64,000 nucleotides of DNA from the NCBI GenBank assembly GCA_944381165.1, contig CALWKC010000003.1, positions 58,259 through 122,258 of the forward strand, read 5' to 3'. Source of the DNA: an uncultured Lachnospira sp. (GTDB lineage: Bacteria; Bacillota; Clostridia; Lachnospirales; Lachnospiraceae). Numbering within the stretch: position 1 is the first letter of the stretch; every line of letters starts with the position of its first letter. Positions 15,782-36,321 of this stretch are shown in pieces. Under the pieces are notes generated by a model, which ran no database searches, was not told the origin of the DNA, and saw only the letters and a list, made by a program, of their open reading frames with translations. The position numbers were made by a program, and so were the translations under genes.

Positions 15782-15821
15782 TGCAAAATATGCCTTAAAG
15801 TGTGCAAAATATGCCCTTAAA
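15782..15821 (+). promoter_or_regulatory. Direct repeats with 21-bp period, possible LytTR sites
   Basis: TGCAAAATATGCCTTAAA (15782-15799) is repeated as TGCAAAATATGCCCTTAAA (15803-15821), start to start 21 bp, i.e. two helical turns on one face of the DNA. They stand 100-140 bases upstream of the first secreted-protein gene, before an AT-rich promoter region around TATGGTAAAATATATA. Same-face direct repeats upstream of a weak -35 are the usual layout for LytTR regulators such as AgrA; such a regulator is encoded at 28395. Confidence 0.55.
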
Positions 15822-15920
15822 TAAAAAAATGAATATTTATATGGTAAAATATATATATCTTCTATATTAAAAAGCGCTTGAGAAGATTCAAACTATTTAT
15901 GGGAATGGGGGGTGAAGATT

Positions 15921-16322
15921 ATGAAACATAAAAAGAAATTTATAAGTGTCGTGCTTGCTGCAATGCTAGTCACTATATTGTCTCCGGTAAGTTCGGCATA
16001 TGCTGCAGATAAATATTCAGAGGCATCGGCAGTGCTGTTGTATAACATATACGGAGAGTATGGCGGATATGGAGCGCATTCGGTTGATTTAACTGTGGCA
16101 GACGGCTCGTATGCTGTGATTGACGATTATAGTATTTGGATGGGTGAAGGGGATTTTATAAACTATGTTCCTTCAGAATCATATTATAATTCAGGCACAG
16201 ATGCCTACGCCCATTCTGTATTTCAGGCGATTGTAGGTGACAGATTGGTAAAAGGAGTTGCTTATACCAGCTGTTCTTGTTATTCTGAAATTGAGAATGG
16301 CAGATATTATATTAGTCGGTAA
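15921..16322 (+). CDS. Small secreted protein, 133 aa, cassette A
   Basis: Not recognised. A clear Sec signal peptide (KHKKKF, then a hydrophobic core, cleavage after SSAYA) leaves a mature protein of about 105 residues, rich in Tyr, Ser, Gly and Asp and without lysine-rich segments. Two cysteines occur close together near the C-terminus (SCSCYSE). The ATG at 15921 follows GGGGGGTG; a GTG three codons earlier is a weaker choice. It heads a unit with a lipoprotein and a polytopic membrane protein, the same order as at 29.4-35.8 kb. A bacteriocin, a surface protein or a signal are all possible; bacteriocin-family resemblance is too weak to claim. Confidence 0.75.
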   Translation: MKHKKKFISVVLAAMLVTILSPVSSAYAADKYSEASAVLLYNIYGEYGGYGAHSVDLTVADGSYAVIDDYSIWMGEGDFINYVPSESYYNSGTDAYAHSVFQAIVGDRLVKGVAYTSCSCYSEIENGRYYISR

Positions 16323-16359
16323 CGTATTTTAGCTGTTAAGAGAAATTTCTCAGTGAATT

Positions 16360-16434
16360 GGAAACTATTCAGAGCTGTACAGGATTATACTAAATAAAAT
16401 ATTGCTGGTGTAATTTACACCTCTGAATAGTTCC
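16360..16434 (+). promoter_or_regulatory. Large stem-loop and inner palindrome between cassette A genes
   Basis: GGAAACTATTCAGAG (16360-16374) is complementary to CTCTGAATAGTTCC (16421-16434). At the end of the loop a perfect palindrome GGTGTAA-T-TTACACC (16407-16421) can form instead, sharing bases with the right arm. T-rich sequence follows. It could lower read-through from the secreted-protein gene into the lipoprotein gene, or serve as an operator. Confidence 0.5.
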
Positions 16435-16469
16435 GATTTATTTTAAGAGGCACAGGGAGGGGGATTTTA

Positions 16470-17654
16470 ATGAAATTCAAAGCGGTCGTAATTTTATCAT
16501 TGCTCGTATGCTCGGCATATATGTGCGGGTGCAGGGATTACAAGAAAGAGTATGAAATTTCAAAGGAAACGGATATTGACAGTTCGTTCGTTTCGGCGAC
16601 AGATGACGAGATCGCTTTGTCGGGCGTGTGCACTAATCAGGCTGTCAGCGGCGACGGTCTGTATTACGTTCAGGATAATAAAATTTTTTATTATAGTTTT
16701 AACACTCAAAAAAGCATGAATTGGTGTACGGTCGCAAACTGCAATCATGATAATAAAGAGTGCTGCGGATATATGGGAGAGGACGAATATCTGTCAAAGT
16801 ATTTATTTTATTATAATGAACATATTTATAAGCTTTCAAAGGCTGAAAACGCCGCGTATCTGGAGCAGTACAGCATGGACGGGAGCAGGCATATCACGAT
16901 AGGAAAGCTGTGGGATAAAAATTCTTATGTTTTGGACGATGAGACACTTCTTACCACGGGCTGTGCAAGAATGTACGGAGGAAGGCTTTATTATTTGGTC
17001 AATGAGGATTACAAAACAGTTACACTGTGCTCTATAGATTTAAACGCAGCGGCAAAACCTCAGGTTATATGCTCGTACGAGGAGGAAAACAAAAGAGTTA
17101 ATGCGTATGATTTTTATGTGTCTGAAGGTTTCGCAGCCTTTGCTCTGCGTTTTTCCGATGAAAGCGAAAGCACTCAGAGCATACATGCAGTAAACCTGGA
17201 AGAGAAAAAAGATTATTCTGTTAGTGAGAAAATTGTATATTTTGGATTGGACGGAAGCAGGATATTATATCCGGACCCGGAAAGTCCAGAGGATATTATT
17301 TCTTATGATGTTGTTGCGCAGGAGGCAAAAAAAATAATTGATACGGACAAGGACGGCGGGTACGCGTCTTATTACAATAATATAATATGCGCGGAAGATT
17401 ATATTTTGCTGGATAATGAAATGGAAACAGCTTATGGTTATTATGAGCAGAAAGAAATAAGTCATGTATATAAAATATATGATTATAACGGAACGTGTAT
17501 AAAGGAAATTCCCGCGCAGCAATATGGTCTCGCAGGGTTTAACGGAAGAATTATAACTGCAATTAAGGTGGGAAGGACAATAGAAACGTATATTTACATG
17601 CCGGTAAATCCTACAGACAATAGTATTCAGGCGGAGTGGAAAAAACTTGGGTGA
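16470..17654 (+). CDS. Lipoprotein with Cys/His motif and propeller-like repeats, cassette A
   Basis: 394 residues. The N-terminus is a lipoprotein signal with Cys21 in MCGC. About 70 residues later comes a C-x4-C-x-H-x4-C motif (CTVANCNHDNKEC), followed by repeated YYxxxxIYxL-type strands (FYYNEHIYKL, GGRLYYLV, SLDGSR), as in beta-propeller lipoproteins common in Clostridia. The same motif and strand pattern occur in the lipoproteins at 30060 and 32070. It would be anchored on the outer face of the membrane. The ATG has GGAGGGGG. Six bases separate it from the membrane protein gene, so they are co-transcribed. Role unknown; the Cys/His cluster could bind metal or form disulfides. Confidence 0.78.
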   Translation: MKFKAVVILSLLVCSAYMCGCRDYKKEYEISKETDIDSSFVSATDDEIALSGVCTNQAVSGDGLYYVQDNKIFYYSFNTQKSMNWCTVANCNHDNKECCGYMGEDEYLSKYLFYYNEHIYKLSKAENAAYLEQYSMDGSRHITIGKLWDKNSYVLDDETLLTTGCARMYGGRLYYLVNEDYKTVTLCSIDLNAAAKPQVICSYEEENKRVNAYDFYVSEGFAAFALRFSDESESTQSIHAVNLEEKKDYSVSEKIVYFGLDGSRILYPDPESPEDIISYDVVAQEAKKIIDTDKDGGYASYYNNIICAEDYILLDNEMETAYGYYEQKEISHVYKIYDYNGTCIKEIPAQQYGLAGFNGRIITAIKVGRTIETYIYMPVNPTDNSIQAEWKKLG

Positions 17655-17660
17655 TTTTAT

Positions 17661-19661
17661 ATGGAAATTAGAAAAATATTCGGCAAAAGAAGACTGGGGA
17701 TTATATTTTTATTATGGTTTGTAAACTGCTTTTGTTTTTATAAATCGTATGACAGCATTGAAGAGGCTGAAATAAAAAATTATTATGATAAACAGAAGGA
17801 ATATGTCTTGCTGTATGAAGCGGGCATACAGGAGGTAATAGATGCTTCGGAAACAATACTGGAATCTGACTTGCTGAAAAACAGCAGTGCGTTTGTTGAA
17901 AATAATTTATTGAAAACAAGATATGATTTTATTCAGTTAAAAAAAATACCTGTAAGCACTACCAATACTTTTGGGTTTATGAAAGCATATGATTATAGTC
18001 TGGGTATATTTTTTTGTATGGCGTCTGTGCTCGTTATTATAAGTTCTTTTGCTGAGGAAAAAAAGAACGATTTCTTTTTGATTTTGCACGCATCAAAAAA
18101 CGGTCGGTATAATTTAGTAATCAGGCGTTTTTTGATACTTTTATTCAGCTGTGCATTTATCGTATTTCTATATGAAACATCTGCATATGCTATTAGTGCA
18201 GGAATGTTTCATGACAGTTTGGGCGATTATTTAAAGCCCGTTCAGTCAATGCCGGAATTTGGGCAATGTATACTGCATATTAATTTATTCGAAATGCTTA
18301 TGCTGTGCATTCTTGCTGATATTATTATTGTCATGCTTTTTTGTATGCTGTTCTGGCTATTGACGGAAATTATATTTAAAAAGAATATTATTATACTATG
18401 TTTTTTTGGTATCTGTGCATTTGAGCTGCTTTTATATAATATTATTCGAAACCAGAGCATTTTTAATATTTTAAAATACTGCAACCTTTTAGCTGTATTT
18501 AATTTAAAGGAATATTTATTTACATACTCAAATTATGGGATTTTTAACCTGATTACGGAAACCTCTGTAATTATATCAGCCTTTTCTGTTATCAGTATAT
18601 TATTGCTTTTGATTTTGTTGATTTTAAAATATAACAAAAGCGATACTGCCGGAAAGCAGCCTAAGATTGTATTGTCAGTACAACAGTTTATTTATAAATT
18701 GAAGGGAGATATTTTGAGCCGTCTGCCGCTTGTTTTGACGGAAGTATATAAGCAATTCAGCGTACAGCACGGGCTGTTCATATTGGTTATTGCGGTATTT
18801 ATATTTTTTCAGTCGAGAATTTCTGTCGGCGCTGCGCATAATGAGGTGCAGGCGGAATTAGAACGATATTATAATGAAGTCAGATATGTTGAAAATCAGG
18901 AAGAATTTACAGAAGAGTATTTAAGAAAAATAGATGAATGGCTTATTAATGCAGAAAATGAGCTTTTGGCATACCAAGAGGATAATAATATATATCAAAT
19001 TCAAATTTTAAGTGAAGAAATTAATATTCAAAGACAGGTGGAAGATGAGATTGTTAAGCAGAGGCAGTACAGGCAGCAGCTTCTGGAAAATAAAATTGTG
19101 TGCGGGGTTGTTCCTCAGCAGGAGTTTCAGTCTGTTACCGGTGAAAGAATGTATTCTTATGAGGAAAAGAATGCGCTGATTGCGGTTATTTCAGTTATAA
19201 TAGTCACATATGGTATAGTTTCATATGAGAAAAAAACGCATATGATAGGTTTAATAAGAAGCTCAAAAACAGGTTATAGAAGGTATCTGGTTAAAAAAAT
19301 ATTTTCATTAATCATTATAACATTTATATTCTGGATAATCATATATGGATTAAATTTCATAAATCTGCTCAAGGTATACAATATAAATATTCACGATTTG
19401 CAGTATTCTATACAGAGTATCATGACAATGCAGTCATATCCGCTTAAAATTTCAATCGGTATGTTTTTTGTAATAAAAAATCTGTTGCGTTTTATTTTAA
19501 TGCTGTTGACTGCATTGACTGGATTTTGTATTTCGGTGAAAACATCATATAAAAATGGTGTGTTTTTATGTTCGCTGTTTTTTGTCCCTTATATCTTAGA
19601 CTTAATTGGAATTCATATAATGAAATATTTGTCTGTTTTTTATTGGATGATGATTTGTTAA
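17661..19661 (+). CDS. Duplicated ABC-2-like polytopic membrane protein, cassette A
   Basis: 666 residues built as two homologous halves. Each half has an N-terminal membrane segment, an extracellular helical region of about 100 residues, then about five membrane segments. Two marks repeat in each half: a cytosolic Glu-Lys stretch with R/S-S-K-x-GR (EEKKNDFFLILHASKNGR; YEKKTHMIGLIRSSKTGYR) and an outer-loop QS followed by hydrophobics (KPVQSMPEF; YSIQSIMTM). This layout is that of ABC-2 type permeases, where two permeases are fused. No ATPase gene is adjacent. It is homologous in plan to the protein at 33529. Possible exporter or immunity component for the secreted protein. Confidence 0.75.
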   Translation: MEIRKIFGKRRLGIIFLLWFVNCFCFYKSYDSIEEAEIKNYYDKQKEYVLLYEAGIQEVIDASETILESDLLKNSSAFVENNLLKTRYDFIQLKKIPVSTTNTFGFMKAYDYSLGIFFCMASVLVIISSFAEEKKNDFFLILHASKNGRYNLVIRRFLILLFSCAFIVFLYETSAYAISAGMFHDSLGDYLKPVQSMPEFGQCILHINLFEMLMLCILADIIIVMLFCMLFWLLTEIIFKKNIIILCFFGICAFELLLYNIIRNQSIFNILKYCNLLAVFNLKEYLFTYSNYGIFNLITETSVIISAFSVISILLLLILLILKYNKSDTAGKQPKIVLSVQQFIYKLKGDILSRLPLVLTEVYKQFSVQHGLFILVIAVFIFFQSRISVGAAHNEVQAELERYYNEVRYVENQEEFTEEYLRKIDEWLINAENELLAYQEDNNIYQIQILSEEINIQRQVEDEIVKQRQYRQQLLENKIVCGVVPQQEFQSVTGERMYSYEEKNALIAVISVIIVTYGIVSYEKKTHMIGLIRSSKTGYRRYLVKKIFSLIIITFIFWIIIYGLNFINLLKVYNINIHDLQYSIQSIMTMQSYPLKISIGMFFVIKNLLRFILMLLTALTGFCISVKTSYKNGVFLCSLFFVPYILDLIGIHIMKYLSVFYWMMIC

Positions 19662-19668
19662 AAAGGAA

Positions 19669-20703
19669 TTATGTGACCGCTGCAAGAAACTCTTCGTTGC
19701 TGATTTGCGACGCGTTTACAGCCGTAATAATGGCTTTAGCCATAACATCGGCGGCGAGTGTTCCGACGGCATTTATATCAGCATACACAAAACCGTCGCT
19801 GTCTGCGGCGGTATTTCTTTCTGAGCCGGTTCCGGCGTTTGGGGTGCTTGCGGCATATACCGTATCCCCGTCCGCCATAGTTCCCACGGGATAGATACAT
19901 CTTGCGTATGCATTTGCAGCCATAGAAGCAATTTTATTCATCTCAGCTTTTGAAAATGCCGCGTTTGTAATGACTGCCCCGATAGTGGTATTTCCCGTAA
20001 AAAGGTCTTTGGGAGCAAGGCTTTTATACATTATGGAGCGGGTGTCCTCAAATGCTTTTCGGTCCGGAGTGTGCAGTCCTGCGATTTTTTGTCCGTTTTC
20101 GGGATTTATAATGTCTCCGAGAGCGTTTACGACAACAATGGCCGTTACTGTGAGCTCTCCGAGCCTGACAGAGTGTATTCCAAGACCTGATTTCTGTGCA
20201 AGCCTCATACCTCCGATTTTTCCGACCGTAGCGCCCGTTCCGGCGCCGACATTTCCGACATCGGGAGCTTTGGCGCTGCCCAGCGCACTGAGACAAGCCC
20301 TGTACCCCATGTCGGCGTCAGGGCGTAATTTTGCACTTCCATATGACAAATCATAGATACAGGACTGGCATACAAGAGGAACAAGCGCGCAGCCCGTGTT
20401 ATAGCCGATACCGTTATCCTCAAGACATCTCATCACCCCGTCGGAGGCGGCAAGACCGTAGGCGGAGCCTCCTGAGAGAACAATGGCGTTGACAGGATTG
20501 TCTGCAGTCTCAGGAAGCGTCAGAGGGGTCTCGCGTGAAGCGGGACCGCCGCCGCTTATGTCGCAGCCGACCTTTGCGCCGGATGGAAAGTATATTACAG
20601 TGACGCCTGTCTTGGCGGTGTCATTCTGTGAGTGTCCTATTTGAAATCCGAGGGAGCCGTTGGTGGCTTCCTCTAATTTTATTTCTCTAATCAGCTTTTG
20701 CAT
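19669..20703 (-). CDS. P1 family (DmpA/NylC-like) self-processing peptidase
   Basis: 344-residue Ntn-type hydrolase of peptidase family S58 (DmpA, BapA, NylC). These are cleaved autocatalytically just before the nucleophile; here the site is within GNTTIGAVITNA near residue 240, giving alpha and beta chains. SGGSAYGLAASDGV (about 75-90) and GAGTGATVGK (about 150) are family signatures. They act on N-terminal D- or beta-amino acid peptides or amides. Its start overlaps the end of the upstream ECF S-component gene by 17 bases, so uptake and hydrolysis of the same compound are probably linked. ATG has GGGAGG. Confidence 0.88.
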   Translation of the reverse strand: MQKLIREIKLEEATNGSLGFQIGHSQNDTAKTGVTVIYFPSGAKVGCDISGGGPASRETPLTLPETADNPVNAIVLSGGSAYGLAASDGVMRCLEDNGIGYNTGCALVPLVCQSCIYDLSYGSAKLRPDADMGYRACLSALGSAKAPDVGNVGAGTGATVGKIGGMRLAQKSGLGIHSVRLGELTVTAIVVVNALGDIINPENGQKIAGLHTPDRKAFEDTRSIMYKSLAPKDLFTGNTTIGAVITNAAFSKAEMNKIASMAANAYARCIYPVGTMADGDTVYAASTPNAGTGSERNTAADSDGFVYADINAVGTLAADVMAKAIITAVNASQISNEEFLAAVT

Positions 20704-21319
20704 GTAAACCTCCCACTTTTAATGCCTTATACAGAGTTCTCGTCAATATGCTTGCTATGAGAAAACAGATTACCGCTTCAACAGCGCCCTGAATGCCGAC
20801 AAATGCCAGTACAAATGTGAGAGGGTTTGCTGCGCCGAGCGCCGAAGCAAAGCCCTGAATGTATTCAGTATTATAAAAGAAAATCACAAGTGAGCTCATA
20901 AAAAGAAGTGTATTCAACAGCGGACAGCAAAGGCATGCTATATAATACGACAGCTTGGAAAGCCGGGCTGAACTGTGTACAGCTTTAAAAATAAGTCCTG
21001 TAAGCCAGCCTACAAGAATTCTCATTACTACTGTTGTAATAAATGTTCCTATTGGATTTATGCTGAGGAGTACAGTTCCGAATGCTGTGAGACCAAAGCA
21101 CTGGTAAAAGCTCGTAAGACCGAACGCGGCTCCGCATATTGCTCCGCCTAATGGACCCAAAAGCACAGCGCCTACTGCGACAGGTATAGTCAGAAGCGTA
21201 ATGGAAAGTCCGGGAGTTCGGATGTAGCCGAGCGGCGTCAGAGACATTACGACAATAATAGCTACCATCAGAGCCAGCTCAACCATAAATTTTGTGTTTC
21301 TCTGAGATTTGAATTGCAT
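20687..21319 (-). CDS. ECF transporter S component (PF12822-like)
   Basis: 210-residue substrate-binding membrane subunit of an energy-coupling-factor vitamin transporter, with about six membrane segments and the typical N-terminal MVELALMVAIIVVMSLTPLGYI and the loop LLGPLGGAICGAAFGLTSF. It would work with shared EcfA/EcfA'/EcfT subunits encoded elsewhere. PF12822 members include pantothenate-type importers, but the substrate cannot be fixed here. The in-frame ATG at 21325 sits only two bases from GGAGG; the ATG at 21319, eight bases away, is the better start. A structured element lies about 90 bases upstream. Confidence 0.82.
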   Translation of the reverse strand: MQFKSQRNTKFMVELALMVAIIVVMSLTPLGYIRTPGLSITLLTIPVAVGAVLLGPLGGAICGAAFGLTSFYQCFGLTAFGTVLLSINPIGTFITTVVMRILVGWLTGLIFKAVHSSARLSKLSYYIACLCCPLLNTLLFMSSLVIFFYNTEYIQGFASALGAANPLTFVLAFVGIQGAVEAVICFLIASILTRTLYKALKVGGLHAKAD

Positions 21320-21408
21320 TTTCATTTCCTCCGTTTTTTACAATTAAATTTTAAGTTATAAATTGGGATAAAAATGAACGTAAACTGCGAAAGTTTGAAC
21401 ACCAGAAA

Positions 21409-21466
21409 ATAAAATGATATACATTTCGTGACCGCCTGTCTGGTCGGTCCTAAAGTATCATTTTAT
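21409..21466 (-). promoter_or_regulatory. Structured element upstream of the ECF S-component gene
   Basis: A perfect 11-bp inverted repeat ATAAAATGATA (21409-21419) / TATCATTTTAT (21456-21466) encloses a 36-base loop that itself pairs through GACCG (21430-21434) and CGGTC (21445-21449). In the mRNA direction of the ECF gene the loop holds GGACCGACCAGACAGG. Looks like a leader RNA or operator; I cannot match it to a known riboswitch class. Confidence 0.5.
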
Positions 21467-21539
21467 GAATTGGGGAAAAAAGATTGATTTATCTGATGCA
21501 TTTTCCTTAAGAATAACGCTCGTTGGTATAGTATCATAA

Positions 21540-21749
21540 ATGCGGTGTTACTGCAAATGGAATTTTGTAAAGAAAAAGTGGGCGGCATCGCCGCCCGCTC
21601 ATAAGGAAAAAAGGTACAGCATCATACCTGCGTATGATGCTGTGGGCATTTCTGCCCGGAAAAAGTATAAAGAGGTTTTGTGTGCACTGTGCACATTCAT
21701 GAAGAATTTATGTCAGCGCTGCAGGAATCTGTCCTGCGGCGTTATTTTT
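21540..21749 (+). ncRNA. Hairpin-rich candidate small RNA
   Basis: About 210 bases with four consecutive stem-loops: GGGCGGC-ATC-GCCGCCC (21580-21596), an 11-bp stem CAGCATCATAC-CTGC-GTATGATGCTG (21617-21642), GGGCA-TTTC-TGCCC (21644-21657) and CGCTGCAGGA-ATCTG-TCCTGCGGCG (21717-21741), the last followed by TTATTTTT like a Rho-independent terminator. A TATAGT at 21527-21532 could be its -10. A 90-residue open frame here has no ribosome binding site. I do not recognise 6S, SRP, RNase P or tmRNA signatures. Confidence 0.5.
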
Positions 21750-21907
21750 AGACGGAACTGTTTTAACCCCAATCTGTGTGCCATGCATTATACGCTGCTA
21801 AATCAAAACTAAATCAGCTCCTTTTGATGTTTGTATTATAACTGGAAAATATGTCCAAACAATGACTGTGCTGTAAAGGAATGATAAAAATTATAAATTT
21901 TATCTGA

Positions 21908-21937
21908 TTGACTTTTATAAATATTATAAGATATTCT
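21908..21937 (+). promoter_or_regulatory. Promoter of the ABC exporter operon
   Basis: TTGACT (21908-21913), 18-base spacer, TATTCT (21932-21937), about 40 bases upstream of the first exporter gene. Confidence 0.5.
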
Positions 21938-21978
21938 TAAATAAGATGATTTTGTCAGTATGATAAGGTGGTCAAAAA

Positions 21979-23739: not shown

Positions 23740-23740
23740 T

Positions 23741-25606: not shown

Positions 25607-26959
<1,353 letters not shown>

Positions 26960-27033
26960 CAGAGTTTTTCAAATACCGCGTATAATAATATAGTTATTTC
27001 GGCTTATTGCTGAGTGAAGAAAAGAGGAAGGTT

Positions 27034-27807: not shown

Positions 27808-27809
27808 AT

Positions 27810-28253: not shown

Positions 28254-28327
28254 GAAGCGCATTAAACTGACTAATTATTACAATTAAAATGCATGTTTTT
28301 ACATCAGTATAGAAGGGCATTTCGATA

Positions 28328-28347
28328 TATGTTATATTAATAACATA
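28328..28347. promoter_or_regulatory. Palindrome upstream of the LytTR regulator gene
   Basis: Perfect dyad TATGTTAT-ATTA-ATAACATA, 48 bases before the ATG of the regulator. Likely overlaps its promoter; may be an operator. Confidence 0.5.
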
Positions 28348-28394
28348 GTATTGTGAGCCAAAATGAATAATTTTTCAGTTGGGGGGAATGTTAA

Positions 28395-29108
28395 ATGAAT
28401 ATTGCAGTTATTAATGAGGATGAAGCCTTCTGCCGCCGTATAAAGCGAATGATTTTTAATATATCTAAAGAGACAAAGATATATATAAGAACATTTATAT
28501 TTAATGACGCGCAGGAATTTTATGACAGTATTGAGGTCGAAGATAAATGGGATCTTTGTTTTTTGAATATTGAAAACAAGTACATAAGCGGAATTGAGGT
28601 TGCTGATTATATTCGCGGGCATAAAAACGGTCAGAGATTACAGATAGTGTTTTTTTCGGATAGCACTGAGCGTGTGATGGAGGTTTTCAGATTCAGGACA
28701 CTGGATTTTTTTGTAAAGCCGATTGAAGAGGATTATGTTAAAAAGGCTGTTATTAATACATCAAAGCTGATGAACGTGACTAATTATAAATTTGTTTATA
28801 CGTTTGAAAAGAATATAAATATCGCGCCTATAAATGAGATTATGTATTTTGCAAGCAATCTGAGAAAGATTAGTATTATTTTTAGTAACGGAAGAACTGC
28901 CGAATTTTACGGCAGGCTTAATGATATAGAAAAGGAGCTGTGCAATTCAAGCTTTATAAGAGTGCATCAGTCGTATCTTGTGAACGGAATGTATATAGAT
29001 CATGTGAGATATAATCATGTCGAGCTTACAGACAAGACGACTCTGCCTGTGAGCCAAAGCAGAAGGGGCGATGTATTTGATATTTTCGGGAAGTACAGCA
29101 AAGTATAG
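28395..29108 (+). CDS. LytTR response regulator with altered receiver domain
   Basis: 237 residues: an N-terminal receiver-like domain (1-120) and a C-terminal LytTR DNA-binding domain (about 135-232, with FIRVHQSYLVN). In the receiver the phosphoacceptor position reads LNI (Asn58) instead of LDI, and the usual acidic pair after the first strand is Asn7-Glu8. Ser88 and Lys108 (FVKP) are kept. It is therefore probably not phosphorylated normally, or is constitutively shaped. No histidine kinase is adjacent. It stands directly upstream of the tandem cassette B, which it may control. ATG with GGGGGG. Confidence 0.88.
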   Translation: MNIAVINEDEAFCRRIKRMIFNISKETKIYIRTFIFNDAQEFYDSIEVEDKWDLCFLNIENKYISGIEVADYIRGHKNGQRLQIVFFSDSTERVMEVFRFRTLDFFVKPIEEDYVKKAVINTSKLMNVTNYKFVYTFEKNINIAPINEIMYFASNLRKISIIFSNGRTAEFYGRLNDIEKELCNSSFIRVHQSYLVNGMYIDHVRYNHVELTDKTTLPVSQSRRGDVFDIFGKYSKV

Positions 29109-29143
29109 AGACATAGGGGAAATTAATTAAAAATTTTGCTCCT

Positions 29144-29237
29144 GAAGACTATAAGTGCTGCGATTACGTATTTAATTATGACGAGGCAATTAAGCAGCAG
29201 ATGAGATACATTTCAGTGGATTAGCATAACGCCATGA
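29144..29237 (+). pseudogene. Relic of a cassette lipoprotein gene
   Basis: GAAGACTATAAG and GATTACGTATTT match the sequence just after the lipobox of the lipoproteins at 30165 and 32165 (DYEYSDYVFDN). The last 27 bases read FQWISITP-stop in another frame and match the exact C-terminal end of those proteins (EFQWIKITP). So both ends of a lost paralogue remain, with almost the whole middle deleted. Confidence 0.7.
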
Positions 29238-29461
29238 ATATGCAGTTTTATATATGTTAGGGGCAAAAAGTTTATATATACAAGCAAAATTGATAGATAG
29301 GGGGAATTTGCTTAGAATTGTAGATCAGCCATTAAATAGGGTTAAAGAAGGCATGGGGTTAGTTTGAAAAATTATAATAATTTTTACACGCGGGATTTGT
29401 GTCTGTGCACACTTGGCACAAACCTGTTAGAGAGAAAATGTGTGCAGAAATGAGGGTTATT

Positions 29462-29920
29462 ATGGGATATAAAAAAATACGTAAATTATTTATTTCAGCA
29501 GCTGCTATTCTGGCATGCATACTGGTTTTCAATCCGATAAGCGCATATGCAACACAGTCCGGTGGAAGAAACATGATACTTGAAAAGGATGTGAGTCTTG
29601 ATTCAAGTCATTCAATACACATATATGTTAATGCATATGTGGAGTACTCGTATGACGAAGGTGTGTATGGATGGATTAATAACATAACTATATCTGATGA
29701 CAGCGGGGTTGTAAGTAATGAGGTAAATGTTGAAACATTACAGGCAGTGGATGGTGATGAGACCGGTTATTCGACTTATTGGATAAGATATTTATTTTGT
29801 GGTCATTCCTTTTTAGAAGATTATAGAGGATATATAAATATCTATTTTAACTGCGATGAGTGGGGAGACTTGAGCGGTTGGATTACATATGATTATTTGT
29901 CTAATGAAAGTGTAGAGTAA
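29462..29920 (+). CDS. Small secreted protein, 152 aa, cassette B copy 1
   Basis: Not recognised. Sec signal peptide (GYKKIRKLF, hydrophobic core, cleavage after ISAYA) and a mature beta-rich part of about 122 residues with many Tyr, Asp, Ser and Trp. It ends in NCDEWGDLSGWITYD. The ATG 29462 has GAGGG six bases upstream; earlier in-frame starts are less likely because the signal begins here. It is closely paralogous to the protein at 31573, with most change in the central region between about residues 70 and 115. Possible effector or surface protein. Confidence 0.78.
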   Translation: MGYKKIRKLFISAAAILACILVFNPISAYATQSGGRNMILEKDVSLDSSHSIHIYVNAYVEYSYDEGVYGWINNITISDDSGVVSNEVNVETLQAVDGDETGYSTYWIRYLFCGHSFLEDYRGYINIYFNCDEWGDLSGWITYDYLSNESVE

Positions 29921-29936
29921 AAGTTAAATATTTATT

Positions 29937-29995
29937 GAGCATTGTCTCTATTTGTTTTGTGTATATAGTTTTTACCCCATAAAGGGGCAATGCTC
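29937..29995 (+). promoter_or_regulatory. Stem-loop between secreted-protein and lipoprotein genes
   Basis: GAGCATTG (29937-29944) pairs with CAATGCTC (29988-29995), with an inner CCCC-ATAAA-GGGG. TTATCTATTTT follows. It resembles an attenuator; the second copy of the cassette lacks it. Confidence 0.5.
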
Positions 29996-30059
29996 TTATC
30001 TATTTTAATTATTAAGGTAAGCAGTGTATCAGGGTATGTATGTAGATGGGGGTGATACT

Positions 30060-31451
30060 ATGAAAAAAAGCAAGAACTTAAAAGTTATGCTGATGTGCAC
30101 AGTCATTCTGCTTTCGGCACTCTCAGGCTGCGGCGGGAAGGAAAACGGAGCCGCAAACGCTGACTATGAGTATAGTGATTACGTATTTGACAATGACGAA
30201 GCGCAGTATTATATGAGCAATAATTCGGCCGCCGCTGAGACAGGATATTATTATATAGCAAACTCGCCTGTTTATACAACCTCATATAAATTTTTATATT
30301 ACTTTGATATGATAAATAAAAACTCAATGCCGCTGTGTACAAAGCTTAACTGTGAGCATAATGACGAGAGCTGTGACGCATATCTGTCGGATGATGAATG
30401 CGTTGGACGTAATATATGGTACTATAACAAGCGTATATATATGATTGAACGTACTGCCGAGAAAGACATTCTTGTTTCGTATGACAGGACCGGAAGGGAT
30501 AAAAGGCAGGAAAATGTTTTGTCTGTTGACGGAAGGTCTATTAGCGGTGGTAATAATAACGCTTGTGTTATTCACGAAAAGCTTTACTATATACTTTACA
30601 GTGAGAGTTCTAAATTTATATACGAGGTGTCGATTGATAAAAAAGAGACACCAAAACTTTTAAAGGAGTATAAGAGTGAGAACAGAAAATCAGACACGAT
30701 TATGTTGTATGGGATAGGAGATTATTTATATATAACTATTGTAAAAATATTTAAAGATAACACAAATGATTATATTATTGAAAGCTATAATGTTTTGGAG
30801 GATAGGCTGGTATCAGAGTTTGGGTATATGTCGGACGGCATACAGCTGCAGGGAATGATTTACTCATGGGGATTTAATTCTTTTTATGATGAAAATCGTA
30901 ATTTTTATTTTGTATCAATTTCAGACCAGGCATATTGCCTTAATAAGTTAAATCTTGATACAAAGGAAAATACTGAAATATATACAATCGACCTTTCCGA
31001 AGACACAGGCTCAAGAGAGAACTATATAAACTTACAGGGAATTGACAGCAAGTATCTTTATTTGTACGAACGTGTAGATATTACCGTAGACGATAAAGCT
31101 TTTAATTATGAACAGATGAATTATATTTATATTATTGATACAGACGGGCAGTTGGTCGATACTGTCAGCATGGCATTAAATAAACAGTACATAGAGGAAA
31201 ATAATCTTCCGGAAAAATCAGTAGGTATAACAATAAAATTTTTAGGCGGCGACAGCAGGTATTTAATGCTGATACTTGGTGATTATGCTGTAACGGGACT
31301 GGAATTGTCACACGAAAACATAGAGAAGTATAAAGAGGCATATATAAATGGTCCAAGAATTCAAAAAATGCCGGAAGTATGCGTTGTTGGTGTACTTGAC
31401 AAGAAGAATATTGGCACAGGTGAGTTTCAGTGGATTAAGATAACGCCATAA
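30060..31451 (+). CDS. Cys/His-motif lipoprotein, 463 aa, cassette B copy 1
   Basis: Lipoprotein signal with lipobox LSGC at about residue 24. Residues 45-60 hold the shared DYEYSDYVFDN, and the C-x4-C-x-H-x4-C motif (CTKLNCEHNDESC) comes near residue 100, followed by propeller-like strands (IWYYNKRIYMIER, KLYYILYS, YLYLYER). The last residues are EFQWIKITP. ATG 30060 follows GGGGGTG; earlier in-frame starts would delay the signal peptide. Paralogous to the 463-residue protein at 32070 and to a relic at 29144. Membrane-anchored outside the cell; function unknown. Confidence 0.8.
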   Translation: MKKSKNLKVMLMCTVILLSALSGCGGKENGAANADYEYSDYVFDNDEAQYYMSNNSAAAETGYYYIANSPVYTTSYKFLYYFDMINKNSMPLCTKLNCEHNDESCDAYLSDDECVGRNIWYYNKRIYMIERTAEKDILVSYDRTGRDKRQENVLSVDGRSISGGNNNACVIHEKLYYILYSESSKFIYEVSIDKKETPKLLKEYKSENRKSDTIMLYGIGDYLYITIVKIFKDNTNDYIIESYNVLEDRLVSEFGYMSDGIQLQGMIYSWGFNSFYDENRNFYFVSISDQAYCLNKLNLDTKENTEIYTIDLSEDTGSRENYINLQGIDSKYLYLYERVDITVDDKAFNYEQMNYIYIIDTDGQLVDTVSMALNKQYIEENNLPEKSVGITIKFLGGDSRYLMLILGDYAVTGLELSHENIEKYKEAYINGPRIQKMPEVCVVGVLDKKNIGTGEFQWIKITP

Positions 31452-31572
31452 TTATGAAGTTATGTAATTATAAGTATAAAAATTATAATAATTTTTACAC
31501 GCGGGATTTGTGTCTGTGCACACTTGGCACAAACCTGTTAGAGAGAAAATGTGTGCAGAAATGAGGGTTATT

Positions 31573-32001
31573 ATGGGATATAAAAAAATACGTAAATTAT
31601 TTATTTTGGCAGCTTCAATTCTGGTATGCATACTGGTTTTTAATCCGACAAGCGCATATGCAACACAGTCCGGCGGACAAAACATGATACTTGAAAAAGA
31701 GGTGAGTCTTAATTCAAGTGATTCAATACACATATATGTTAATGCATATGTGGAATACTCGTATGACGAAGGTGTCTATGGCTGGATTACCAATGTAACG
31801 ATGACTGAAGACAGCGGGGTTGGAAGTAATGATGTAAATATAGATATATTGTATAAATATGATGACTCCCAATATGGGTCAGCAACGTATTGGATAAAAT
31901 ATTACTTTAAAGGAGAGGAATACAGAGGGTACATAACTATTAATTTTAACTGTGATGAATGGGGAGATTTGAGCGGCTGGATTACATATGAGGCAGCTTA
32001 A
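31573..32001 (+). CDS. Small secreted protein, 142 aa, cassette B copy 2
   Basis: Paralogue of the protein at 29462, lying exactly one repeat period downstream. Signal peptide with cleavage after TSAYA, beta-rich mature region, same C-terminal end DEWGDLSGWITYE. Ten residues shorter, with most changes between residues 70 and 115. No cysteine is apparent in the mature part apart from the one in NCDEW. Start ATG 31573 with GAGGG. Probably transcribed with the lipoprotein and membrane genes that follow. Confidence 0.78.
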   Translation: MGYKKIRKLFILAASILVCILVFNPTSAYATQSGGQNMILEKEVSLNSSDSIHIYVNAYVEYSYDEGVYGWITNVTMTEDSGVGSNDVNIDILYKYDDSQYGSATYWIKYYFKGEEYRGYITINFNCDEWGDLSGWITYEAA

Positions 32002-32069
32002 TAAAAAGACAAAGTTAAATATTTATTGACTATTGTTTTATAATGCATAATTTAGAAGGGGGTGATACT

Positions 32070-33461
32070 GTGCAAAAAAGCAAGAGCTTAAAAGCTATTC
32101 TGCTGTGCGCAGCTCTGATTTTTTCTGTATTTTCAGGCTGCGGCGGGAAGGATAACGGGGCCGCAAGCGCTGACTATGAGTATAGTGATTACGTATTTGA
32201 CAATAACGAAGCGCAGTATTATATGAGCGATAATGCAGCCGCTGCAGAGACAGGATATTATTATATAGCAAACTCGCCTGTTTATACAACCTCATATAAA
32301 TTTTTATATTACTTTGATATGGTAAATAAAAACTCAATGCCGCTGTGTACAAAGCTTAACTGTGAGCATAATGACGAGAGCTGCGACGCATATCTGTCAG
32401 CCGAAGAGTGCCTTTCGTCAAATATATGGTACTATAACCAGCGTATATATATGATTGAGAGAAGCGACGAGAAAGATAGATTGGTTTCATATGATAAAAC
32501 GGGCAGAGATAAAAAAAATGTCGCTGATTTGTCAGTTGACGGAAGGTCGGTTATACAGAGTCAGAACAGGGCTTGTGTAAGCCATGGAAAACTGTACTAT
32601 ATGCTTGCCGGGGAAAAATCACAGTTCTTATATGCGGTGCCTCTTACAGGAACGGATACCCCGAGGCTTATAAAGGAATATACAAGTGAGTATGAGATAA
32701 GGGAAACTCTTACACTTTATGCAATAGAAGACCGGGTTTATATAACACTGGTGAGCGGTATAACGAGTGATACAAATAATTATATAATTGAATGTCTTGA
32801 TATTTCGGATGGAGAGCCGGTGAGAAAGTTTGATTATATGTCTGACGGCGCGTCAGTACGCGGCGATATTGATGGTTGGGAAATACAGGCGTGCTATGAT
32901 GCAGAGGGGAATTTTTATTTTACATCCATCTCAGATGAGGCATACTTTGTCAATAAATTAAATCTTGAGACGAAAGAAAATACAGAGATATACACAATTG
33001 ACATTTCGGAAGATACGGGCTCAAGAGAAGACTATATTGATTTATGCGGTTTTGACGGCAAGTATCTTTATGTATATGAAAGTGTAGATTTTTCTGTAAA
33101 AGAAAACAGACAGAATTATGAGCTGGGAAATTATTTTTACATAATTGATACTGAAGGAAAGCTTGCAGATACTATTATGCTGACTAAAAATACGGAATAT
33201 GCGGAAGAAAATAATATTTCCGCAGTTTCTGCCAGTGTCAGTGTGTCGCTTAAGGGAGGTGACAGCAGATATTTACTGGTTGATTTTAGCAATTACTGTG
33301 TAAGAGGAATTGAAATGTCACAGGAGGATATAGATAAATATAAAGAGGAGTACACAAAAGGAATTAGTCAGATGAAAATGCCTAATGTATGTGTTGTAGG
33401 AGTACTTGACAAGAAACAGATTGGAACTGGAGAGTTTGAGTGGATTAATATAACGCCTTAA
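32070..33461 (+). CDS. Cys/His-motif lipoprotein, 463 aa, cassette B copy 2 (GTG start)
   Basis: Paralogue of the protein at 30060, of the same length. Lipobox FSGC, the shared DYEYSDYVFDN and the C-x4-C-x-H-x4-C motif are kept; the rest diverges moderately, mainly in the predicted propeller. GTG 32070 corresponds to the ATG of the first copy and has GGGGGTG before it. It precedes the duplicated membrane protein gene by 67 bases. Confidence 0.8.
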   Translation: MQKSKSLKAILLCAALIFSVFSGCGGKDNGAASADYEYSDYVFDNNEAQYYMSDNAAAAETGYYYIANSPVYTTSYKFLYYFDMVNKNSMPLCTKLNCEHNDESCDAYLSAEECLSSNIWYYNQRIYMIERSDEKDRLVSYDKTGRDKKNVADLSVDGRSVIQSQNRACVSHGKLYYMLAGEKSQFLYAVPLTGTDTPRLIKEYTSEYEIRETLTLYAIEDRVYITLVSGITSDTNNYIIECLDISDGEPVRKFDYMSDGASVRGDIDGWEIQACYDAEGNFYFTSISDEAYFVNKLNLETKENTEIYTIDISEDTGSREDYIDLCGFDGKYLYVYESVDFSVKENRQNYELGNYFYIIDTEGKLADTIMLTKNTEYAEENNISAVSASVSVSLKGGDSRYLLVDFSNYCVRGIEMSQEDIDKYKEEYTKGISQMKMPNVCVVGVLDKKQIGTGEFEWINITP

Positions 33462-33528
33462 CTGAGACGGCAGTCCGGCAAAAGGGGCTTGTCTCCGGTT
33501 GAGGAGCCGCTGGGGAATGGAGTTTTAT

Positions 33529-35751
33529 ATGGAATTTTTGAGGGTTTTAAAAAAAACATGGGTTGCTGCGCTGATTATTTTCACAGCAATTATAGGGGTA
33601 TGCCTTTTTAAAATTCACAACAGCAGCGACAGTCAGGTTTATAAGTTTTATAAGCAGATGATTGGCGAATATAAGGAGCAGCTTGCGGTGTCTTCAAAGG
33701 AAAGTGCACAGAAGGCTGTTTTCGGAAAGAAAAAAGAAGATGATGAAAACACCGAATACAGGCAGTCCGCTATGCAGCTTCTGACGGAAAAAATTAATTA
33801 TACGGATAATTATAAAAATACGCTTCAGATTACTTCAGATTACGAAAAAATATTGAACAGCAGCCTGTATTCAGGGCAGAATGATTTCGGAAGAATTAAT
33901 GCCTTAAAATATGCAGAGGATATGTCGGCGCTTTCTGATGTAAATGTCACACTCGGCAATACGACGGCTATTGAAAAGCTGATGGAGTTCAGGGAAATTC
34001 CGGTGCTTTTTGCAGTTATGATGATTATATTTATAATTGCGTTTGTCGAGGAGAGAGATAACGGTGTAATTATGATTGTCAGGTCATCAGGCAGAGGACG
34101 GTCTGTGCTTGCACTCAAAAGAAACATGATAATTATAGCTTTCAGTATTGTATATTCATTTATTTTCAATATGGCTGTGTATGGGATATATCTCTATGTA
34201 TACGGCGGAAGCGATGATTTGGGAAATGCTGTTCAGAGCTCGGAAATGTTCTCAATGTTTCCGATGAAAATCAGCGTCGGGCAGTTTTTTTGTCTGTACT
34301 GTCTCGTTTTTGCGCTTGCCATGTCTGTATTGGGTATGCTTTTTTATTTATTTATCAGTTTTTTTAAAAACTATAAGATTGCGATTGTACTGCTGCTTGC
34401 AATATTTCTGTGCGAATTCATATTATATGAAAATATAGAAGCAAACAGCGCACTATGTATTTTTAAGTACGTAAATCTGATAAATATTCTTCTGCCGGGA
34501 ACATCATATGTAATTTATGAGAACTGGGGTTATAACGGATTTATAACGGATATTTCAACCTCGACTTATATAATTACATCAGTAACAGGAGCTTTAAGTT
34601 TTGCCGGAGTTGTGCTTGCGGGGTGTTTTTTATATCCTGACAGGAGAGAAAGAGTTTTAGACAGAATATACGATAAAATAATATTATTATGGCAGAAGAT
34701 ATTTTACAGGACAAATTCTCTTTTTATGGAGCTGTATAAGACTTTTGTCATACAAAAGGGGCTTCTGATACTTGTGATTGCGGTATATCTTTTCGCAAAC
34801 TGTAAGCTGTACAGAGGCGTTGACTATTCGCAAAGCAGCTTTTATCTTGTTGATTTCTATGAGGAATTTTCGGGGAAAGCGCCAGATGAGGCGTGTGAGG
34901 AATATCTTAATAATTTTAAGGCAGAGCTTGACAATTTAAAAAAAATAGAAAATCCTACATATATTCAGAGAAAAAACGCCGAGGATATGTCATCGGCACT
35001 GTCTGCGATGAATACTGTGGTCGAGCATGTAAATAAAATGCGCGACGAAAAAGGTATAAATGCGGTAATTGTAAAGCCTGATACATATAATGATATACTT
35101 GGAGAGAGAAATTATGCGAATCAGGAAAATATTAATCTGGTGTGCATTATTGCTGTTATTTTAATTCTCTCAGGTGATTTCTCTTTTGAAAGAAACAGTG
35201 GTATGTATGTACTTGGAAGAACTGCGAAGCGAAGAGAGCTAACATGGCGGAATAAGACACAAAAGCTTCTTCTTACAGCCGCGGCAATGTGGGGGATTTC
35301 ATTTCTGATAAACTGGCTTAATGTTACGTCACTGTATGATTTTAACGATTTGTCGGCGCCAGTTCAAAGCCTGTCTGAATTTGCTGATTTTCCGCTTCGG
35401 GTGAGTATTGCCGGATATATAGTTTTATGTCAGCTTGTGAGACTGTTTTTGCTCTGTATGATAAGCTTTATCGTATCAGGCATTTCGTTTTATATGGATT
35501 ATAAACGCTCTGTCGCGCTGTCTGTAGTTTTGCTGCTTCCGCATGTGCTGTATATATTTGATATACCGTTTATGTATTACCTGTCGGCTGTAATATCTCT
35601 TGACTTTAACAGATATTGGTTAAGGTTTGGAAACAGCGCTGCCGGGTTTATATTGCCTGCAGTGATAATCGCTGCGGGTGCTGCTTTGTACATGAGAGCA
35701 TACTGGAAGTGGAGAGGCGTTAAAAGTAAGATTTTGAAGAATGTGCGATAA
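33529..35751 (+). CDS. Duplicated ABC-2-like polytopic membrane protein, cassette B
   Basis: 740 residues in two homologous halves, each with one membrane segment, a helical outer region of about 120 residues and five or six membrane segments. Repeated marks: EERDNGVIMIVRSSGRGR and ERNSGMYVLGRTAKRR on the inner face, NAVQSSEMF and APVQSLSEF on the outer face, each followed by a similar hydrophobic stretch. The plan equals that of the protein at 17661. The ATG 33529 has TGGAG and gives the same N-terminus as the paralogue (MEFLRVL against MEIRKIF); a start at 33517 or the TTG at 33499 is less likely. No ATPase gene is adjacent. Confidence 0.77.
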   Translation: MEFLRVLKKTWVAALIIFTAIIGVCLFKIHNSSDSQVYKFYKQMIGEYKEQLAVSSKESAQKAVFGKKKEDDENTEYRQSAMQLLTEKINYTDNYKNTLQITSDYEKILNSSLYSGQNDFGRINALKYAEDMSALSDVNVTLGNTTAIEKLMEFREIPVLFAVMMIIFIIAFVEERDNGVIMIVRSSGRGRSVLALKRNMIIIAFSIVYSFIFNMAVYGIYLYVYGGSDDLGNAVQSSEMFSMFPMKISVGQFFCLYCLVFALAMSVLGMLFYLFISFFKNYKIAIVLLLAIFLCEFILYENIEANSALCIFKYVNLINILLPGTSYVIYENWGYNGFITDISTSTYIITSVTGALSFAGVVLAGCFLYPDRRERVLDRIYDKIILLWQKIFYRTNSLFMELYKTFVIQKGLLILVIAVYLFANCKLYRGVDYSQSSFYLVDFYEEFSGKAPDEACEEYLNNFKAELDNLKKIENPTYIQRKNAEDMSSALSAMNTVVEHVNKMRDEKGINAVIVKPDTYNDILGERNYANQENINLVCIIAVILILSGDFSFERNSGMYVLGRTAKRRELTWRNKTQKLLLTAAAMWGISFLINWLNVTSLYDFNDLSAPVQSLSEFADFPLRVSIAGYIVLCQLVRLFLLCMISFIVSGISFYMDYKRSVALSVVLLLPHVLYIFDIPFMYYLSAVISLDFNRYWLRFGNSAAGFILPAVIIAAGAALYMRAYWKWRGVKSKILKNVR

Positions 35752-35775
35752 ATTGCTTCGGAATGGAGGGGTATT

Positions 35776-36321
35776 ATGAAAAAATTAATGTGTATTTTGT
35801 GTGCTGCTGCGCTGTTTTTATTGACAGGCTGCACGGAAACCATAGATGAGGTTATTAATAATACGAGGTCGCCTGAGGAGATAGAAGAGCAGGAAAGCTA
35901 TATTTGGGAAAAAGTTCCTTCATACACTGAGGTTTCGGAAAGCGATGAGGCGAATGCCGATGATTTGCTGAAAAAAGTAATCGAAACTGAAAATGGTATA
36001 TCGAGCATAGAGGATATATTTACAGATAAAGTAAGAGATGAAATGGTAAATATAATTAACGAGTGGTATAACAACAAATTTTATACTGTTAAACATATTG
36101 AGAAGGAAGAAATGACCAAATTAGAGGTTAAAAATTATGAAACATCGGTAGTTTATTGCGATGGTATACCGATGATAAAGATGTATTTTACAACTTCGGC
36201 TACAAAGGTAATAGCAGGGACAGAGGATTCATTAAATGCACTTATAGATGTCTCAGGAGAGGAATACAGTGTCTATGAGATGTGGTATGAAGGAAAGTAC
36301 AGATATGGAACAGTATTTTAA
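35776..36321 (+). CDS. Small lipoprotein, 181 aa, end of cassette B
   Basis: Signal with lipobox LTGC (Cys18), then about 35 acidic residues and a globular part with SIEDIFTDKV and an alternating strand pattern to the end. I do not recognise it. GGAGGGG precedes the ATG, and it starts 25 bases after the membrane protein gene, so it belongs to the same transcript. Cassette A has no counterpart. Confidence 0.7.
   Translation: MKKLMCILCAAALFLLTGCTETIDEVINNTRSPEEIEEQESYIWEKVPSYTEVSESDEANADDLLKKVIETENGISSIEDIFTDKVRDEMVNIINEWYNNKFYTVKHIEKEEMTKLEVKNYETSVVYCDGIPMIKMYFTTSATKVIAGTEDSLNALIDVSGEEYSVYEMWYEGKYRYGTVF

What the first reader, a model, noticed from the sequence alone, without database searches (positions are those of the whole stretch)
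15782..36321. Two loci encode an unassigned secreted-protein / lipoprotein / duplicated-permease system
Cassette A (15921-19661) and cassette B (29462-36321) share gene order: small Sec-secreted protein, lipoprotein with C-x4-C-x-H-x4-C, then a membrane protein built as two ABC-2-like halves. The families have similar architecture, yet the secreted proteins of A and B are not obviously alike in sequence. Neither locus encodes an ATPase. I infer an export, immunity or surface-sensing system, with a diversifying secreted component.
Basis: partly seen in the sequence, partly recalled or inferred. Interest (0 to 1): 0.72.

Follow-up and report, generated by a model that had tools for sequence, protein, structure and literature searches.

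The report
Secreted-protein, propeller-lipoprotein, ABC-2 permease cassettes
A gut bacterium of the genus Lachnospira carries about ten copies of a little-known gene cassette (a small secreted protein, its partner lipoprotein and a membrane pump that seems to borrow its motor from elsewhere in the genome), which looks like a family of bacteriocin-type weapons with their self-protection, though that use is not yet proven.

Summary
Both cassettes hold a small Sec-signal protein, a propeller lipoprotein with C-x4-C-x-H-x4-C, and a permease of two homologous ABC-2 halves; B carries the secreted-lipoprotein pair twice. None of these proteins reaches a curated Pfam or NCBIfam cut-off. The host genome has 10 such permeases and 12 such lipoproteins; 11 lie beside a permease, the twelfth at a contig end, and all 12 have a secreted gene upstream. 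The missing ATPase is real locally but misleading: it is adjacent in 44 of 49 scorable loci outside the genus and 7 of 25 within it. The host has a stand-alone cognate ATPase (77% identical to ones beside permeases in a congener), and L. eligens keeps one where its lipoprotein and permease are gone. A shared ATPase is therefore likely, though one near-complete draft has permeases and no family ATPase. Both cassettes are absent at clean sites in a sister species; relatives sit beside agr/LytTR quorum-sensing genes. Best reading: bacteriocin-like secreted proteins with lipoprotein plus ABC-2 self-protection, working like LanI/LanFEG but failing membership tests for that and for lactococcin 972. 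Antibacterial activity is inferred, not shown.

The parts
15640..19678 (+). Cassette A as a unit of gain or loss: the sister genome G414 lacks this block
   Evidence: L171 3-742 = window 20418-19679 (95.9%), L171 748-3000 = window 15639-13385 (93.3%), 5 bases between; G+C 0.345 against 0.422 for the whole window
15783..15815 (+). two exact 12-base direct repeats at a 21-base period, 138 to 106 bases before the secreted gene; LytTR-type operator by inference
   Evidence: one further copy (1 mismatch) in 243,500 bases of own loci, in front of another secreted-type gene beside a LytTR regulator on contig C1; mean 0 in 5 mononucleotide shuffles; 1 match in the window against 0.02 expected in dinucleotide shuffles; C1 copy also found by the whole-genome DNA search
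15921..16322 (+). small Sec-signal protein of cassette A (133 aa)
   Evidence: weak relative on own C1 (30% over 69 aa); no Pfam or NCBIfam match
16470..17654 (+). propeller lipoprotein A with C-x4-C-x-H-x4-C
17661..19661 (+). duplicated ABC-2-type permease A
28395..29108 (+). LytTR response regulator upstream of cassette B (AgrA type)
   Evidence: Pfam LytTR E 2.8e-17, Response_reg E 4.2e-7
29147..29252 (+). decayed remnant of a further lipoprotein gene (start and end only)
   Evidence: direct repeats D6 and D7; kept in sister G414
29269..35744 (+). Cassette B core as a unit of gain or loss: absent in sister G414, which keeps the regulator, the remnant and the small lipoprotein
   Evidence: L157 1-2459 = window 38159-35745 (90.9%), 2503-3765 = window 29268-28006 (94.4%), 43 bases between; G+C 0.367
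29462..29920 (+). small Sec-signal protein B1
30063..31451 (+). propeller lipoprotein B1 (ORF opens at 30024)
31573..32001 (+). small Sec-signal protein B2; all-beta model, mean pLDDT 75.5
32070..33461 (+). propeller lipoprotein B2 (ORF opens at 32043)
33517..35751 (+). duplicated ABC-2-type permease B (ORF opens at 33499)
35776..36321 (+). accessory small lipoprotein; a relative (27%) lies inside a cassette of another species (L147)

Best explanation
Each cassette encodes (1) a small Sec-exported all-beta protein that acts outside the cell, most likely a bacteriocin-like effector, (2) a cognate membrane-anchored propeller lipoprotein that binds it, and (3) a fused pair of ABC-2 transmembrane halves. 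The ABC ATPase, adjacent in most relatives, is here supplied in trans by a stand-alone cognate ATPase that serves many permeases. Lipoprotein and transporter would protect the producer: the lipoprotein captures the effector at the membrane and the transporter strips or expels it, as LanI and LanFEG do for lantibiotics. Some relatives are wired to agr/LytTR quorum sensing. SHOWN here by sequence: the gene families, their linkage, the internal duplication of the permease, the ATPase beside relatives, the stand-alone ATPase, presence/absence of whole cassettes between sister species, tandem duplication of the secreted-lipoprotein pair, and an agr/LytTR neighbourhood in a minority of loci. INFERRED: antibacterial activity, binding of the secreted protein by the lipoprotein, direction of transport, and sharing of the ATPase.
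For: Linkage: own genome 10 of 10 permeases with a lipoprotein, 12 of 12 lipoproteins with a secreted gene upstream; 64 of 74 scorable permease loci with a lipoprotein. Pair as unit: tandem duplication in B, in L143 and L044, and probably at C25/C1, where the sister G414 keeps the second lipoprotein (91%) but lacks the secreted gene that precedes it in the own genome. ATPase: adjacent in 44 of 49 scorable loci outside the genus, 7 of 25 inside (Fisher 1e-7); stand-alone C38 ATPase 77% identical to the ones in G008, one of which sits beside a permease only 39% identical to B; L. eligens ATPase intact (99% aa, dN 0.003, dS 0.20) where G411 has small lipoprotein, lipoprotein, permease and ATPase. 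Regulation: AgrB beside G008:C26 (E 1.8e-38); L. eligens secreted-small lipoprotein-lipoprotein-permease-LytTR-kinase, then AgrB and AgrD on the other strand. Cassettes absent at clean sites in G414. Lipoprotein modelled as a propeller.
Against: No secreted protein matches a known bacteriocin family above cut-off; the nearest is a sub-threshold match of one relative (L116) to BLB8/JUQZ-1 (E 0.0032, 17.7 bits against a cut-off of 40). In other genomes only 17 of 66 scorable loci show a secreted gene upstream of the lipoprotein, so permease, lipoprotein and ATPase often seem to work without it. LytTR regulators are near only 16 of 74 loci. G403 (96% complete) has 2 permeases but no ATPase of this family at E <= 1e-85, and the sister G414 (85% complete) lacks the C38-type ATPase, which weakens the sharing claim or reflects gaps. 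One of two orthologous secreted proteins is conserved rather than fast-evolving. The SecB model is of medium confidence and matches no solved fold.
Confidence: 0.47

Rival explanations
1. Surface sensing: the secreted protein is a ligand or density signal, the lipoprotein its receptor, and the ABC-2 permease with its ATPase a sensor-transducer (in the manner of BceAB) that feeds the LytTR/agr or ECF regulators.
For: LytTR regulators and histidine kinases lie near 16 and 13 of 74 scorable loci, AgrB near 3 (an undercount: my seed missed the AgrB annotated in L. eligens), an ECF sigma factor near 1; LytTR regulator directly upstream of cassette B.
Against: agr already supplies its own signal (AgrD beside AgrB), and 58 of 74 scorable loci have no LytTR regulator found nearby. 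Large secreted beta proteins are unusual signals (general knowledge).
Confidence: 0.21
2. Export or surface assembly: the ABC-2 transporter and lipoprotein help to release, fold or anchor the secreted protein after Sec export.
For: Constant gene order secreted-lipoprotein-permease in the own genome.
Against: The secreted proteins carry signal peptides (judged by eye and a crude script); 49 of 66 scorable loci in other genomes show no secreted gene upstream of the lipoprotein.
Confidence: 0.13
3. Resistance to foreign antimicrobials only: the lipoprotein and transporter protect against agents of competitors or host, and the secreted protein is a decoy or scavenger.
For: Many loci show lipoprotein, permease and ATPase without a secreted gene, some with 2 to 4 lipoproteins (15 of 83 stretches, the window with its two cassettes included).
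Against: Does not explain the pairing of secreted gene with lipoprotein throughout this genome nor the tandem duplication of the pair.
Confidence: 0.13

Closest known systems
Lantibiotic self-immunity, LanI lipoprotein plus LanFEG ABC-2 transporter (e.g. NisI/NisFEG; start of abstract of PMC4828448 in a search listing; details recalled)
   Same: A lipoprotein and an ABC-2 transporter with two membrane halves and a separate ATPase, encoded with a secreted antimicrobial and often under a two-component regulator.
   Different: The secreted product is a Sec protein of about 110 mature residues with no modification enzymes in the cassette; the two permease halves are one chain; the lipoprotein is a large propeller with a Cys/His motif; the ATPase can be in trans.
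Lactococcin 972 family bacteriocins, incl. mediterrocin of Mediterraneibacter gnavus (PMC12345188: outline with abstract, passages and section 9 seen)
   Same: Small Sec-exported protein encoded near a multi-spanning membrane protein and an ABC ATPase in Lachnospiraceae.
   Different: No match to PF09683, none to TIGR01653 above E 0.5; no DUF1430 protein; no similarity as profiles to two local family members; the two local loci hold no propeller lipoprotein or duplicated ABC-2 permease of this family.
Multitask ATPases of type I importers, MsmK/MsmX (search listing and start of abstract of PMC7658222 and PMC5730181)
   Same: One ATPase energises several permeases encoded elsewhere.
   Different: Known for sugar importers; here the permeases are ABC-2 type, and sharing is inferred from gene content only.
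Split relatives: two half-size permeases with ATPase (loci L100, L122, L123, L124)
   Same: Same permease profile, same ATPase family.
   Different: Halves are separate genes, as in LanE/LanG (recalled).

Membership tests
ABC-2 type transporter | permease recognised as ABC-2 membrane domain | tested here: met
   ABC2_membrane_3 in 2 and ABC2_membrane_4 in 1 of 20 family members, best E 2.2e-6; permeases A and B themselves do not match at E <= 1; weak NosY match of the profile in PDB, E 0.027
ABC-2 type transporter | cognate ABC ATPase | tested here: met
   adjacent in 51 of 74 scorable loci; stand-alone in own genome; absent from cassettes A and B
LanI/LanFEG immunity | lipoprotein plus two permease halves plus ATPase | tested here: met
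   as family architecture; halves fused, and no ATPase gene in the window cassettes
LanI/LanFEG immunity | lanthipeptide precursor and modification enzymes in the cluster | tested here: not met
   no such family among the 10 proteins of the two cassettes scanned; rest of the genome not scanned
Lactococcin 972 bacteriocins | match to PF09683 / TIGR01653 | tested here: not met
   0 of 32 secreted proteins at E <= 0.05; own genome 0 matches; one relative (L116) touches TIGR01653 at E 0.51
Lactococcin 972 bacteriocins | DUF1430 membrane protein in the cluster | tested here: not met
   permeases A and B have no such Pfam match at E <= 1
Bacteriocin in general | inhibits other bacteria, producer protected | not testable with these tools
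   needs purified protein and mutants
Shared (multitask) ATPase | one ATPase needed by several permeases | tested here: inconclusive
   gene counts 10 permeases to 3 ATPases in own genome, 5 to 2 in L. eligens, but 2 to 0 in G403; function not testable here

The most novel reading that the evidence does not exclude
A new, widespread class of Sec-exported protein bacteriocins of gut Clostridia, each with its own propeller lipoprotein as specific immunity protein, plugged into a common ABC-2 immunity pump whose ATPase serves up to ten diversified permeases encoded across the genome: a modular, quorum-controlled arsenal in which whole cassettes and effector-immunity pairs are duplicated, gained and lost.
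Probability: 0.36. Interest if true: 0.8.

Novelty: new variant of a known kind. Interest (0 to 1): 0.61.

Why it matters
If right, a common human gut genus (Lachnospira, including L. eligens) carries a large, uncharacterised set of secreted proteins with matched self-protection, annotated as hypothetical proteins even in a finished genome. It would give new handles on competition between gut commensals, and would be a case of one ATPase serving many ABC-2 permeases, testable with a single gene deletion.

Tried and rejected
Lactococcin 972 membership of the secreted proteins: my first guess from a resemblance of pattern; rejected by Pfam, NCBIfam and profile comparison. A first profile run with badly trimmed signal peptides was repeated with better, still approximate trimming; neither showed similarity between groups.

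Relocation of a secreted-lipoprotein pair: I first took the own pair on contig C25 for an orphan that had moved. Checking showed that C25 ends 316 bases after that pair, that contig C1 ends 85 bases before its cassette's secreted gene, and that both contigs are collinear with one G414 contig, including a shared 393-aa neighbour. The likely reading is one locus split between two contigs, so the relocation claim was dropped; odds were lowered slightly (0.50 to 0.47; novel case 0.38 to 0.36).

Phage or plasmid origin: the lipoprotein profile found no relative in viral contigs; 2 plasmid records matched, both L. eligens. PADLOC: 0 matches at E <= 0.05 for the 7 window proteins scanned; the stand-alone ATPase matches ATPase models. 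Rfam: nothing in the cassettes above a gathering score.

Positive selection on the secreted protein: not seen in one ortholog (0.13) or in B1/B2 (0.25 mature part); higher in the C25 ortholog (0.82, few changes) and the L044 pair (about 0.76 mature part).

Counting lipoproteins against secreted genes per locus: by my definition secreted genes could not exceed lipoproteins, so I draw nothing from that tally. The 104 of 104 motif count is partly circular, since the lipoprotein profile contains the motif; two propeller-like neighbours without the motif lie beside permeases (L107, L145).

Fold search with VIA-align was not available.

Rows dropped before counts: permeases shorter than 580 aa or too near the edge of the fetched stretch were left out of the 74 scorable loci, among them own C1 and C4; L146 and L147 were left out as duplicates of L039 and L183. 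The 74 loci are search hits, not a random sample, and some are near-duplicates (e.g. L045 and L138). The weak C14 lipoprotein hit (21 bits), two N-terminal fragments and the half-size C58 hit were not counted. Searches scored only 5, 2 and 2 candidates per genome, so their counts are lower bounds.
Full report
THE OBSERVATION. Both cassettes are as described. A: Sec-signal protein (ATG 15921), lipoprotein 16470-17654, membrane protein 17661-19661. B: Sec-signal protein 29462-29920, lipoprotein to 31451, second Sec-signal protein 31573-32001, second lipoprotein to 33461, membrane protein to 35751, then a small lipoprotein 35776-36321. Signal peptides and lipoboxes were judged by eye and by a crude script, not by a dedicated predictor; the signal of the C20a secreted protein could also be read as a lipobox. 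The B pair is a tandem duplication of about 2.0-2.1 kb. Both copies are open with dN/dS below 1 (mature secreted part dN 0.18, dS 0.71; lipoprotein dN 0.25, dS 0.95). A decayed third lipoprotein lies at 29147-29252. None of the secreted, lipo- or membrane proteins reaches a curated cut-off in Pfam or NCBIfam; the regulator upstream of B is a LytTR response regulator.

THE PERMEASE. A profile of 20 members shows two homologous halves (hhalign 99.7%, E 1.6e-25). ABC-2 domains are recognised in two or three of 20 members. Relatives with the halves as two separate genes with an ATPase exist (L100, L122, L123, L124).

THE LIPOPROTEIN. C-x4-C-x-H-x4-C is invariant in 20 of 20 aligned members apart from the last spacing and present, with some spacing variants (80 exact), in 104 of 104 lipoprotein ORFs found by the profile, against 8 of 479 other ORFs of 300-600 aa (partly circular, see Tried and rejected). 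The model (mean pLDDT 80.2) matches propeller-bearing chains such as tricorn, acylaminoacyl peptidase, PCY1 and TolB at E 3e-8 to 5e-7, with modest TM-scores (0.23-0.51 by query length); the profile finds similar propellers by sequence.

THE SECRETED PROTEINS. The B2 model is all-beta, mean pLDDT 75.5, with no PDB match at E <= 0.001 (best 0.16). In the own genome they fall into groups by blastp links that range from strong to weak: A with C1 and C25; B1, B2 and C7; C20a, C6, C4, C20b and C17; C18 alone. Profiles of these groups do not recognise each other.

A MULTICOPY SYSTEM. The window is G000:C3:58259-122258. The genome has 10 long permeases and 12 lipoproteins of the family. Every permease has a lipoprotein; 11 of 12 lipoproteins lie beside a permease; the twelfth, on C25, lies 316 bases from its contig end and is probably the upstream part of the C1 cassette, because both contigs are collinear with one G414 contig. 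All 12 lipoproteins have a small Sec-signal gene upstream, 10 directly, C20b with one and C18 with two small lipoprotein genes between (by inspection). Background: 27 of 517 other genes of at least 250 aa have such a gene within two upstream positions. Fisher for 11 of 12 within two positions is 7e-13, for the 7 of 8 own loci scored automatically 2e-8, and for 11 of 49 loci outside the genus 1.4e-4. Across 74 scorable permease loci: lipoprotein in 64, ATPase in 51, secreted gene upstream of the lipoprotein in 24 (own 7 of 8, others 17 of 66). The permease is found in 33 of 200 family genomes with the B protein alone, 143 of 397 with the profile at E <= 1e-10 (many of these are half-size ABC-2 permeases), and 17 of 390 other genomes of the class at E <= 1e-50.

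THE ATPASE. Outside the genus 44 of 49 scorable loci have the ATPase adjacent, inside it 7 of 25 (Fisher 1e-7). In the own genome only the C1 locus has it, of 9 with the downstream side visible (C4's permease ends 137 bases from its contig end). A profile of the ATPase finds C38 (498 bits, stand-alone), C1 (392), C58 (309, beside a half-size permease), then a drop to 154 bits. The C38 ATPase is 77% identical to both ATPases of G008, although the B permease is only 39% identical to its best relative there. In L. eligens (G398, recognised by its contig length, equal to NC_012780.1) there are 5 permeases at E <= 1e-40 and 2 family ATPases at E <= 1e-85. One of these stands where G411 has small lipoprotein, lipoprotein, permease and ATPase: flanks 95% alike, ATPase 99% identical, dN 0.003, dS 0.20, the other genes gone but for a 60-base stretch of the permease. 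The G411 permease at that place is itself short and continues in another frame, so there too the ATPase looks better kept than its permease. Against sharing: G403 has 2 permeases and no family ATPase at E <= 1e-85, and G414 lacks the C38 type; both are drafts.

GAIN AND LOSS. In the sister G414 (97% identity of CysK) block A (15640-19678) and block B (29269-35744) are missing, with 5 and 43 unmatched bases at the junctions. Both blocks are poor in G+C (0.345 and 0.367 against 0.422). At the C25/C1 locus the own genome reads secreted, lipoprotein, (contig break), secreted, lipoprotein, permease, ATPase; G414 reads secreted (90%), lipoprotein (89%), lipoprotein (91%), permease, ATPase, without the second secreted gene at that place. 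A lipoprotein can thus stand without the secreted gene that precedes its orthologue, as expected of immunity genes; whether G414 holds that gene elsewhere was not searched.

SELECTION. Sister orthologues: secreted C20a 96% and dN/dS 0.13, its lipoprotein 0.14, its permease 0.32; secreted C25 90% and 0.82 (dN 0.046, dS 0.056), its lipoprotein 0.26, the neighbouring 393-aa gene 0.20. The picture is mixed.

REGULATION. In L. eligens NC_012780 the order is secreted, small lipoprotein, lipoprotein, permease, LytTR regulator, kinase, and on the other strand AgrB and AgrD; the first four are annotated hypothetical. AgrB, a LytTR-like regulator and a GHKL kinase follow the ATPase in G008:C26; G409 and G411 have similar arrangements. 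Over all 74 scorable loci a LytTR regulator was found near 16. Upstream of cassette A two exact 12-base repeats lie at a 21-base period; the same element occurs once more in the own loci, beside the LytTR regulator on C1, in front of another secreted-type gene related (27%, E 1.6e-16) to one that precedes the 'Lactobacillus rogosae' ATCC 27753 cassette. A 21-base period of direct repeats fits LytTR operators (recalled, no call).

MECHANISM. Shown and inferred steps are marked in Best explanation. Lipoprotein plus two ABC-2 halves plus ATPase is the architecture of LanI/LanFEG; the secreted protein takes the place of the lantibiotic. I put the bacteriocin-immunity reading at 0.47, and rate the ABC-2 transporter identity and the one-system claim as nearly certain.

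KNOWN OR NEW. The literature library gave no description of this system in the listings of searches; most subscription papers are not held. The nearest found in print is mediterrocin (PMC12345188; outline with abstract, passages and section 9 seen), of the lactococcin 972 family, from which this differs on each tested feature except Sec export and a membrane protein with an ABC ATPase.

Noticed in passing
G000:C1, locus L038 6466-7060 (- strand): A further secreted-type gene beside a LytTR regulator, preceded by the cassette A repeat element; its signal part and mature part lie in different frames, so it looks broken or mis-sequenced.
   Followed up: partly
ends of G000:C25 (L151) and G000:C1 (L038): Both contigs stop inside one cassette locus and are collinear with a single contig of the sister G414 (L182): probably one locus split by the assembly.
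   Followed up: partly
window 29368-29470 and 31479-31580: Identical leaders of about 100 bases before B1 and B2 with an inverted repeat around TGTGCACA.
   Followed up: partly
L086 (G111:C25) and L087 (G084:C7): Lactococcin 972 family genes (over the Pfam cut-off) with a multi-spanning membrane protein and an ABC ATPase nearby, in 2 of 200 family genomes.
   Followed up: partly
L189 7957-9917 (G411:C106): Permease that is short and continues in another frame, beside an intact ATPase.
   Followed up: no
window 54730-54825: S10-Clostridia ribosomal protein leader (Rfam RF03136, 77.9 bits).
   Followed up: no
L034 5380-7677 (G000:C7): A Cache-GGDEF-EAL signalling protein downstream of the C7 cassette.
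   Followed up: no
L045 2959-3522: An ECF sigma factor-like gene, judged by eye, and a one-span protein precede a cassette with three lipoproteins, permease and ATPase.
   Followed up: no
L100, L122, L123, L124: Operons with two half-size permeases around or beside the ATPase: likely the unfused relatives of the duplicated permease.
   Followed up: partly
window 15636-15674: Terminator-like hairpin, seen by eye, after the flavodoxin-like gene at the left edge of block A.
   Followed up: no
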